From positions 1,860,001 through 1,924,000 of the forward strand of contig NZ_CP157967.1 in assembly GCF_040215725.1 (NCBI RefSeq): a DNA stretch of 64,000 nucleotides, written 5' to 3'. Of the stretch, positions 5,922-7,675 are shown in pieces. The DNA comes from Rhizobium sp. ZPR4 (GTDB lineage: Bacteria; Pseudomonadota; Alphaproteobacteria; Rhizobiales; Rhizobiaceae). Position 1 is the first letter of the stretch, and every line of letters begins with the position of its first letter. Made by a program: the position numbers and the translations under genes. Under the pieces are notes generated by a model. It saw only the letters and a list, made by a program, of their open reading frames with translations. It was not told the origin of the DNA and searched no databases.

Positions 5922-6107
5922 CTTCCGCTCCGAAATCGCTTGAAATTTCCGGCCATAAAGGCTGCCTAATTGGCGGCCTGCCGATTCCTTTTTCGCAATT
6001 TTAACGACAAGCCGGTGCGAAACCAACCGCGGCGAAGCGTAATTCAGGCAAATCTCGCAGCCTCACGGGCAAACCGGTGTTTCCGCGAAGCATTTATGAC
6101 AATTGCC

Positions 6108-6136
6108 CTTCCCTTCGCCTGCGGAAAACACTATAT
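6108..6136 (+). promoter_or_regulatory. Candidate promoter of ssrA
   Basis: CTATAT at 6131-6136 resembles the rhizobial -10 box and is preceded, with a 17-base spacer, by the weak -35 CTTCCC at 6108-6113 (consensus CTTGAC). Transcription would begin near 6143, just before a GCCGG/CCGGC hairpin at the presumed 5' end of the tmRNA precursor. Confidence 0.4.
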
Positions 6137-6139
6137 CAG

Positions 6140-6475
6140 CCTTGCCGGTCTTCGGGCCGGCTATGGCGATAAATGAGCGGTGTAATAAACCTATTGGACC
6201 CGGGGGCGGTACCCGGCGCCTCCACCAAAAACCGGCCGGCAGAACTTGCGTCAGACCGGCTTTTGATGGGGGCGAAACAGGATCGACAAGGGTGTAAAGA
6301 TCGACTTTTTGCTCGGCATTGTACCGCCGTTATCGGGCTAAAATTGTAGTTGCAAACGACAACTATGCGGAAGCTCGTCTCGCTGCTTAATCGCGGTGTG
6401 ACACTTCAAATAAAGTCCTAAGGGGTCGCACTCTTAGGCGGGGTTCGAAGGCACCTGGCAACAGAAGCCTTCACC
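6140..6475 (+). ncRNA. ssrA: Transfer-messenger RNA, circularly permuted two-piece form
   Basis: The acceptor piece comes first. Its T arm is CCGGG, loop GGCGGTA, CCCGG (6200-6216), followed by the acceptor strand CGCCTCC at 6217-6223 and ACCA at 6224-6227. A spacer of about 40 bases follows. The coding piece begins with GGGGGCG at 6268-6274, which pairs with CGCCTCC (one G-U). The tag reading frame at 6352-6387 encodes ANDNYAEARLAA and stops with TAA at 6388-6390. A CCTAAG/CTTAGG hairpin and a GAAGGC/GCCTTC stem follow. tmRNA rescues stalled ribosomes and tags the peptide for ClpXP. The order acceptor-then-coding is the permuted arrangement known in Alphaproteobacteria. The outer ends are approximate. 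Confidence 0.95.
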
Positions 6476-6593
6476 TTCTTCTCCAGTGCTATATTATAGA
6501 TCGACATGTGGTGACTCGCGCATAGGGCTTTTCCGGCGGCGTTCAGCATGGCATAAGCCTATAAAAAACATGGCCAACGAAAGACAGGAAAGC

Positions 6594-7106
6594 ATGGGGC
6601 AGGATCATATCCGCTACGACATTTTGGCACAGGACGCCCTGCGTGGAGTGATCCGCAAGGTGCTGACCGAGGTCGGCGCCACAGGCCGCCTGCCCGGTGA
6701 CCACCATTTCTTCATCACTTTTCTGACCGGCGCTCCCGGCGTGCGCATTTCGCAGCACCTGAAGTCGAAGTATCCGGAGCAGATGACCATCGTCATCCAG
6801 CATCAATTCTGGGATCTAAAAATCACCGAAAGCCAGTTCGAGATCGGCCTCTCCTTCTCCGACGTTCCGGAAAAGCTGGTGGTCCCCTTCAACGCTATCC
6901 GCGGCTTCTACGACCCTTCCGTCAATTTCGAGCTGGAATTCGACGTGCCGTTGGCCGACGAGGAGGAAGAGACCTCCTCCAGCGAAATCACCGCCTATCC
7001 GGTGCCGGTCGAAGGCGAGGAAGTGCCAGCCGCAGCAGCCAAGGAAGGCGAGGAAAAGAAGCCGGGATCGGTCGTCTCGCTCGACGCGTTCCGCAAGAAG
7101 CAGTAG
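6594..7106 (+). CDS. sspB: ClpXP adaptor protein SspB (alpha type)
   Basis: 170 residues. SspB binds ssrA-tagged substrates and tethers them to ClpX for degradation in the cytoplasm. The substrate-binding domain spans about 1-125 (IRYDILAQDALRGVIRKVL, HHFFITFLTGAPGVRIS, YPEQMTIVIQHQFWDL). An acidic, Ala/Glu-rich flexible linker follows, and the C-terminal tail VVSLDAFRKKQ (160-170) corresponds to the ClpX-docking peptide. The ATG at 6594 has AGGA upstream and gives the usual N-terminus; an ATG 24 bases earlier lacks a ribosome site. It lies 120 bases after ssrA, the gene that makes its substrate tag. Confidence 0.95.
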   Translation: MGQDHIRYDILAQDALRGVIRKVLTEVGATGRLPGDHHFFITFLTGAPGVRISQHLKSKYPEQMTIVIQHQFWDLKITESQFEIGLSFSDVPEKLVVPFNAIRGFYDPSVNFELEFDVPLADEEEETSSSEITAYPVPVEGEEVPAAAAKEGEEKKPGSVVSLDAFRKKQ

Positions 7107-7114
7107 GCATTGCC

Positions 7115-7139
7115 GGGGAAGCAACCGCTTCCCCTTTTT
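7115..7139 (+). terminator. Rho-independent terminator after sspB
   Basis: Perfect stem GGGGAAGC / GCTTCCCC with loop AACC at 7115-7134, followed by five T at 7135-7139. It lies 8 bases after the sspB stop and 24 bases before the DUF4169 start, so it should separate or attenuate the two transcripts. Confidence 0.88.
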
Positions 7140-7163
7140 CATGTCGGCAACGGGAAGAGATCG

Positions 7164-7358
7164 ATGAGCGCCGAAATCGTCAATCTGCGCCAGTTTCGCA
7201 AGAAGCAGGCCCGCTCGGACAAGGAAAAGCAGGCGGAGCAGAACCGCATTTCCTTTGGGCGCACCAAGGCCGAGAAGAAGCTGACGACAACGCTCAACGA
7301 AAAGACCGCAAAGGCGCACGACGCCGGCCGAATCGAGACTAAGAAGACCGAAGACTAA
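7164..7358 (+). CDS. DUF4169 family small protein
   Basis: 64 residues, highly basic and predicted helical, typical size for DUF4169, a small alphaproteobacterial family of unknown function. The start is MSAEIVNLRQFRKKQ, and NRISFGRTKAEKK in the middle is the family's conserved part. ATG 7164 is preceded by GGAAGAG. Its residues 6-15 (VNLRQFRKKQ) resemble the C-terminal docking tail of SspB, encoded just upstream (VSLDAFRKKQ), with seven of ten positions identical. Whether it binds ClpX is untested. It is separated from sspB by a terminator. Confidence 0.83.
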   Translation: MSAEIVNLRQFRKKQARSDKEKQAEQNRISFGRTKAEKKLTTTLNEKTAKAHDAGRIETKKTED

Positions 7359-7462: not shown

Positions 7463-7675
7463 ATGATCCGTAAACATTCCGCGACGCTGCATGGCCATCG
7501 CACAAGCTTTTCCCTTGAAGATGCCTTCTGGACAGAACTGAAGGCTATCGCCAACGTGCGTGGCACGTCGCTCGCAGCGCTGATCTCCGAGATCGACGAC
7601 GGGCGCGAAGCCGGCAGCAATCTCTCCTCCGCACTCCGCCTCTATGTCCTCAAATGGCTGAAGGATCGCAACTAA
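7463..7675 (+). CDS. Ribbon-helix-helix domain protein
   Basis: 70 residues, a stand-alone ribbon-helix-helix domain of the alphaproteobacterial type often found beside sspB/DUF4169. Seen: the beta strand HGHRTSFSLEDAFW followed by ELKAIANVRGTSLAALISEI and a second helix, SNLSSALRLYVLKWL. Such proteins usually dimerise and may bind DNA; no target is evident. ATG 7463 is taken as the start; a TTG 15 bases earlier is possible. It lies about 100 bases after DUF4169 on the same strand and is followed by mosaic repeat copy B. Confidence 0.83.
   Translation: MIRKHSATLHGHRTSFSLEDAFWTELKAIANVRGTSLAALISEIDDGREAGSNLSSALRLYVLKWLKDRN

What the first reader, a model, noticed from the sequence alone, without database searches (positions are those of the whole stretch)
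7073..7208. DUF4169 protein begins with a copy of the SspB ClpX-docking tail
Seen: SspB ends VSLDAFRKKQ (residues 161-170) and the next gene's product begins with VNLRQFRKKQ (residues 6-15), identical at seven of ten positions (V, L, F, R, K, K, Q). Known: the C-terminal tail of SspB docks on the ClpX N-domain. Inference: DUF4169, a small basic protein, may bind ClpX through an N-terminal copy of the docking peptide and act as a second adaptor, a competitor or an anti-adaptor of SspB delivery. The genes are adjacent but separated by a terminator, so they can be controlled separately.
Basis: partly seen in the sequence, partly recalled or inferred. Interest (0 to 1): 0.72.

Follow-up and report, generated by a model that had tools for sequence, protein, structure and literature searches.

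The report
SspB-tail look-alike in tmRNA locus
A tiny protein of unknown function, encoded next to the genes that tag and deliver unfinished proteins for destruction, starts with nearly the same short peptide that ends the delivery protein SspB, which suggests that it may plug into the same socket of the ClpX protease.

Summary
SspB (6594-7106) ends VVSLDAFRKKQ; DUF4169 (7164-7358) begins MSAEIVNLRQFRKKQ. The likeness is class-wide: 0 of 4000 column-permuted SspB-tail profiles match DUF4169 as well as the real one, and in 105 whole genomes the strict motif [VIM][VIM]xL[DN]xF[RS]K had 82 hits, 66 SspB tails, 9 DUF4169 N-termini and 7 unassigned singletons. Linked pairs keep one strand and order in 34 of 34 genomes fetched as linked. 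Against: the SspB Phe column is kept in 167 of 171 tails but in 45 of 151 DUF4169 (Ala 65, Val 18); it changes often, shows no association with linkage or the SspB residue, at low power, and one genome that lost the Phe tail keeps Phe in DUF4169. A shared short motif is well supported. ClpX docking is plausible but untested (about 0.45), and competitor versus adaptor is undecided.

The parts
6105..6475 (+). tmRNA (ssrA) gene, two-piece alphaproteobacterial type, tag ANDNYAEARLAA
   Evidence: Rfam RF01849 304.6 bits; ARAGORN 6133-6481
6594..7106 (+). sspB, 170 aa, ClpXP adaptor for ssrA-tagged proteins (function by family)
   Evidence: Pfam PF04386 163.9 bits; PDB 2nys 301.8 bits starting at the same Met, also 2qas, 2qaz
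7071..7103 (+). SspB C-terminal tail VVSLDAFRKKQ
   Evidence: consensus in 101 genomes, 171 genomes
7115..7139 (+). intrinsic terminator GGGGAAGC-AACC-GCTTCCCC-TTTTT between sspB and DUF4169
   Evidence: found by a strict rule in at least 26 of 79 relatives
7164..7358 (+). DUF4169 gene, 64 aa, predicted two helices (2-31, 35-54)
   Evidence: Pfam PF13770 74.8 bits; AlphaFold2 mean pLDDT 80.9, pTM 0.44
7176..7208 (+). SspB-tail-like N-terminal motif IVNLRQFRKKQ of DUF4169
7242..7277 (+). second conserved block of DUF4169, NRISFGRTKAEK
   Evidence: alignments A1-A3
7463..7675 (+). RHH_4 ribbon-helix-helix gene, part of the conserved cluster
   Evidence: Pfam PF13467 86.1 bits; present in the linked loci

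Best explanation
DUF4169 is a small protein of the tmRNA-SspB-ClpXP pathway of Alphaproteobacteria. Its N-terminus carries the alphaproteobacterial version of the SspB ClpX-docking peptide (hydrophobic pair, Leu, then Phe or a smaller residue, then Arg-Lys, with the spacing V..L..F). It would bind the zinc-binding N-domain of ClpX at or near the SspB site, and so share or compete for it; the rest of the protein (basic helix with NRxxFGRTKAEK) would bind a second, unknown partner. Shown: the motif, its conservation, its near restriction to two families, the locus. Inferred: binding to ClpX, competition or delivery. Versions with Phe, such as the one in this window, would be the stronger binders.
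For: 0 of 4000 permuted profiles match as well; the 104 DUF4169 without Phe also exceed all of 2000 shuffles (median 11.8 bits). Without any pre-selection by motif, the median of 131 DUF4169 frames is beaten by 3 of 961,716 other windows. Whole-genome search of 105 genomes: 66 of 82 hits SspB tails, 9 DUF4169, 7 others without recurrence, reversed-pattern control 11. The motif begins two residues after Met in 53 of 69 aligned sequences. Cluster: tmRNA upstream of sspB in 28 of 30 Rhizobiaceae loci and 18 of 30 class-wide loci, the window's own among them; sspB upstream on the same strand in 79 of 79 Rhizobiaceae loci; DUF4169 on the same strand and downstream of sspB in 34 of 34 linked genomes. 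The ClpX N-domain has Met (CVELCM) in 26 of 26 genomes with the Phe tail and Asn in 4 of 4 genomes of one family with tails VVTVDFGKKK or alike; the solved chains 1ovx and 2ds5 (E. coli, recalled) have Asn and the E. coli tail has no Phe (PMC3983244): a hint that this tail sits on this domain. The Caulobacter ClpX N-domain has functions that the E. coli one cannot replace (PMC5422525, passages), so binders special to this class are expected.
Against: Phe in only 45 of 151 DUF4169: 14 of 29 in a sample of the window's family and 3 of 27 in order loci, 2 of 18 in the family with Asn in ClpX (ClpX was seen for 2 of those 18). No association of Phe with linkage (27 of 75 linked, 12 of 38 others) or with SspB Ser; too few supported pairs to exclude one. 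G012 lost the SspB Phe tail but keeps Phe in DUF4169. The residue after Leu is Asp in SspB (95 of 101) but Asn, Arg or Lys in most DUF4169 (66 of 69). The model puts the motif at the start of a long helix, not in a floppy tail. No binding or complex prediction was possible.
Confidence: 0.45

Rival explanations
1. Convergence: the N-terminus of DUF4169 is a capped basic helix (Asn cap, then LxxxRKxxxR) that binds RNA, the ribosome or another partner in the same pathway; the likeness to the SspB tail is a coincidence of two short amphipathic basic motifs.
For: Phe is labile (Ala 65, Val 18 of 151); Asn before Leu is invariant in DUF4169 (69 of 69 counted) but mostly Ser, Thr or Ala in SspB (87 of 101); predicted helix from residue 2; basic protein with a second conserved block.
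Against: The permutation control keeps the composition and never reaches the observed score; the strict motif is nearly confined to these two neighbouring families.
Confidence: 0.35
2. DUF4169 is a ClpXP substrate whose N-terminus is recognised by the ClpX N-domain, as for lambda O, rather than a regulator.
For: The E. coli N-domain binds substrates directly and the SspB-tail peptide inhibits degradation of lambda O and FtsZ (PMC3983244, passages); DUF4169 is small with a low-confidence C-terminal end.
Against: Nothing here shows turnover; a pure substrate would not by itself explain the lasting linkage to ssrA-sspB.
Confidence: 0.12
3. The two motifs are homologous: the end of sspB was duplicated into the start of the next gene.
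For: Adjacent genes, same strand, in Rhizobiaceae.
Against: In four loci of other families fumC lies between them, so adjacency in the window looks derived; Phe is about as frequent in genomes where the genes were not found linked. Homology of ten residues cannot be proved.
Confidence: 0.04

Closest known systems
SspB and its ClpX-binding tail (XB peptide; E. coli RGGRPALRVVK)
   Same: Terminal short peptide with hydrophobic and basic residues; same locus; nearly the same motif as the alphaproteobacterial SspB tail
   Different: N-terminal instead of C-terminal; no SspB substrate-binding domain; Phe variable; binding not shown; E. coli XB letters differ from both
E. coli UmuD (N-terminal ClpX tether)
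   Same: Named in PMC3983244 (passages) as bound by the ClpX N-domain; that the signal is an N-terminal peptide resembling SspB's is recalled
   Different: UmuD is a subunit of a DNA polymerase (recalled); DUF4169 is a short protein with a two-helix model
Caulobacter ClpX N-domain adaptors CpdR-RcdA-PopA and SocA
   Same: Act, or are proposed to act, through the ClpX N-domain in an alphaproteobacterium (PMC5422525, passages)
   Different: The strict motif was not found in a third recurrent family; these adaptors were not examined one by one
DUF4169 (PF13770)
   Same: Member, 74.8 bits against a cut-off of 25
   Different: Family has no assigned function; the one held paper that names it lists it among expression changes (PMC13207237, passage)

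Membership tests
DUF4169 (PF13770) | Profile match over the curated cut-off | tested here: met
   74.8 bits, cut-off 25
SspB-type ClpX adaptors | SspB substrate-binding domain (PF04386) | tested here: not met
   DUF4169 matches only PF13770 at E up to 1
SspB-type ClpX adaptors | Terminal peptide of the clade's SspB-tail type | tested here: met
   By sequence only; Phe column met in 45 of 151 family members, the window's among them
SspB-type ClpX adaptors | Binds the ClpX zinc-binding domain | not testable with these tools
   No complex prediction or assay available
SspB-type ClpX adaptors | Delivers or withholds a substrate | not testable with these tools
   Needs degradation assays
N-terminal ClpX tethers (UmuD-like) | Docking-like motif at the N-terminus | tested here: met
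   Motif begins two residues after Met in 53 of 69; by sequence only
N-terminal ClpX tethers (UmuD-like) | UmuD/LexA-type fold | tested here: not met
   Two-helix model; only PF13770 found

The most novel reading that the evidence does not exclude
DUF4169 is a dedicated ClpX N-domain ligand of the ssrA-sspB locus throughout Alphaproteobacteria: an anti-adaptor or second adaptor that sets how much ClpXP serves tmRNA-tagged proteins, with lineages tuning its strength by switching Phe to Ala or Val.
Probability: 0.3. Interest if true: 0.75.

Novelty: new variant of a known kind. Interest (0 to 1): 0.58.

Why it matters
ClpXP is required in Caulobacter and its N-domain has duties that the E. coli N-domain does not fulfil (PMC5422525, passages). 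A widespread small protein that carries the SspB docking peptide at the other end and lives in the tmRNA-SspB locus would be a ready candidate regulator of trans-translation clean-up, would give a function to a domain of unknown function, and can be tested with one peptide-binding experiment.

Tried and rejected
Bare V..L..FRK in the own genome: 16 hits against a control of 21, no signal; by eye most lie in frames without gene character, the exceptions being SspB, DUF4169, a sigma-factor-like and a glycosyltransferase-like frame, named by recall. Covariation of DUF4169 Phe with SspB residues or linkage: none found, low power. Protein database search for DUF4169 failed twice by time-out, so relatives come from genome searches. 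The papers on the Caulobacter SspB structure, UmuD tethering and ClpX N-domain specificity are not held; nothing is taken from them beyond what is marked as recalled. A fold search of the two-helix model was not run, as it would mean little. Homology by tail duplication: judged unlikely because fumC lies between in four loci of other families.

Rows dropped, samples and weak points: one search left out 6 of 75 DUF4169 that did not fit the pattern. One search used a looser pattern for 151 and may misplace the column in a few divergent ones (such as G009, G143, G311); the 151 mix a class sample with the best-scoring family and order loci. One search took only DUF4169 that fit N[LF]xxx[RK][KR], cut from 4 residues before it; one search did not. 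The 79 Rhizobiaceae loci are the closest of 512 found (80 kept, one, L401, without a DUF4169 frame), so they favour Phe: 77 of 79, against 14 of 29 in the family sample; one of the 79 gave a wrong window by pattern. The 34 of 34 linked genomes were fetched because they were linked; among genomes whose two rows were both visible on one contig, 34 of 49 lay within 20 kb (tally by eye). One search also scanned 25 class loci that mostly end about 300 bp from sspB; 1 showed a tmRNA. In two of the 28 positive Rhizobiaceae loci (L393, L398) the tmRNA lies further from sspB.

Full report
What is there. On the plus strand the window holds, in order, a two-piece tmRNA gene (6105-6475; Rfam RF01849, 304.6 bits; tag ANDNYAEARLAA), sspB (6594-7106), DUF4169 (7164-7358) and an RHH_4 gene (7463-7675). 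SspB matches the solved chains 2nys, 2qas and 2qaz (that these are Agrobacterium and Caulobacter proteins is recalled). The nearest named loci are Rhizobium species, the best 98% identical in DUF4169. The finding does not mention the tmRNA gene, which is the most telling neighbour.

Is the likeness more than chance? In 101 genomes of the class the SspB tail reads V-V/I-S/T/A-L-D-x-F-R-K-K. A profile of 46 distinct tails was scored on 961,716 other windows of translated frames: the best was 15.7 bits; the median of 131 DUF4169 frames was 13.1, beaten by 3 windows; the top quartile (21 bits and more) was beaten by none. With 66 tails and shuffled columns, which keep the composition, 0 of 4000 profiles reached the observed median (13.7; shuffled mean -5.4, maximum 7.1); the best window was the N-terminal motif in 149 of 149 distinct sequences, and the 104 without Phe still exceeded all of 2000 shuffles. 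The sequences had been picked by their core motif.

Is it special to these families? The strict motif [VIM][VIM]xL[DN]xF[RS]K was searched in 105 whole genomes: 82 hits, reversed-pattern control 11. They are 66 SspB tails, 9 DUF4169 N-termini and 7 single hits in frames matching neither profile. 38 of the 82 were fetched to decide (31 SspB, 7 others); the other 44 were assigned by their coordinates. No third family recurs.

Locus. DUF4169 was found in 157 of 385 and SspB in 338 of 385 genomes of the class. Linked pairs (34 genomes, fetched for linkage) have DUF4169 on the same strand and downstream of sspB in 34 of 34. fumC lies between in the four loci looked at (fumC named from its sequence by recall, not by a profile search). 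In 79 of 79 Rhizobiaceae loci sspB is upstream on the same strand, mostly by 10-75 bp. A tmRNA lies upstream of sspB in 28 of 30 Rhizobiaceae loci and 18 of 30 class-wide ones. The terminator in the window has counterparts in at least 26 of 79 relatives and in none of the 21 gaps under 30 bp, so the genes are probably read together in part of the family.

Constraint. In the 79 closest Rhizobiaceae loci the motif is nearly fixed while synonymous codons vary (Phe 11: TTC 53, TTT 24; Asn 7: AAT 68, AAC 10). More widely Phe is one of several states: 14 of 29 in a family sample, 3 of 27 in order loci, and over 151 sequences Ala 65, Phe 45, Val 18, others 23, against Phe in 167 of 171 SspB tails. 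On an SspB tree of 113 genomes Phe changes at least 22 times and goes neither with linkage nor with the SspB residue; few supported pairs were available.

Does this tail bind ClpX? Established for E. coli: the SspB tail peptide RGGRPALRVVK binds the N-domain and inhibits degradation of other N-domain ligands (PMC3983244, passages). For the alphaproteobacterial tail this is assumed here. One hint came out: in 30 genomes the ClpX N-domain residue after the last zinc Cys is Met in 26, whose SspB tails have the Phe, and Asn in 4 of one family whose SspB tails are VVTVDFGKKK, VVTVDFGRKK or VVAVDFKRKK; solved E. coli chains have Asn too (organism recalled). This may be one or two events and proves nothing alone. 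In that family DUF4169 has Phe in 2 of 18, one of them in a genome whose SspB lost it. Caulobacter's ClpX N-domain cannot be replaced by that of E. coli for DnaX processing, though it can for CtrA degradation (PMC5422525, passages).

Structure. The model of DUF4169 has helices 2-31 and 35-54 (mean pLDDT 80.9, pTM 0.44). In helix 1, I5, L8 and F11 are spaced i, i+3, i+6, as are V, L and F of the SspB tail; both could present one hydrophobic stripe. This is inference.

Reading. Most likely DUF4169 belongs to the tmRNA-SspB-ClpXP pathway and its N-terminus imitates, or shares the ligand of, the SspB tail (0.45). Whether it competes, delivers another substrate, or is itself degraded is open. The chief rival (0.35) is a helix start serving another partner.

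Print. A full-text search for DUF4169 in the held library gave one paper, an expression list (passage seen). Searches joining SspB with ClpX, ssrA and alphaproteobacterial terms listed no title or abstract about this motif; only search listings were seen for most of those papers, and subscription papers are mostly not held.

Noticed in passing
6105-6475: Two-piece tmRNA gene directly upstream of sspB; the ssrA-sspB neighbourhood recurs across the class (18 of 30 loci tested) and the tag differs by clade (ANDNYAEARLAA, ANDNNAKEYALAA and others).
   Followed up: partly
L273-L276 against L277-L302 (ClpX loci): ClpX N-domain Met to Asn switch (CVELC-M/N) coincides with loss of the L..FRK tail of SspB in four genomes of one family; a candidate contact between tail and N-domain.
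   Followed up: partly
7242-7277: Second conserved block NRxxFGRTKAEK in DUF4169, more constant than the N-terminal Phe; partner unknown.
   Followed up: no
7463-7675: RHH_4 ribbon-helix-helix gene travels with sspB and DUF4169, upstream or downstream of DUF4169.
   Followed up: partly
L090, L098 (G009, G143): Divergent DUF4169 N-terminus NIVDFGSARKN resembles the odd SspB tails VVTVDFGKKK of another family, though their own SspB tails are ordinary.
   Followed up: no
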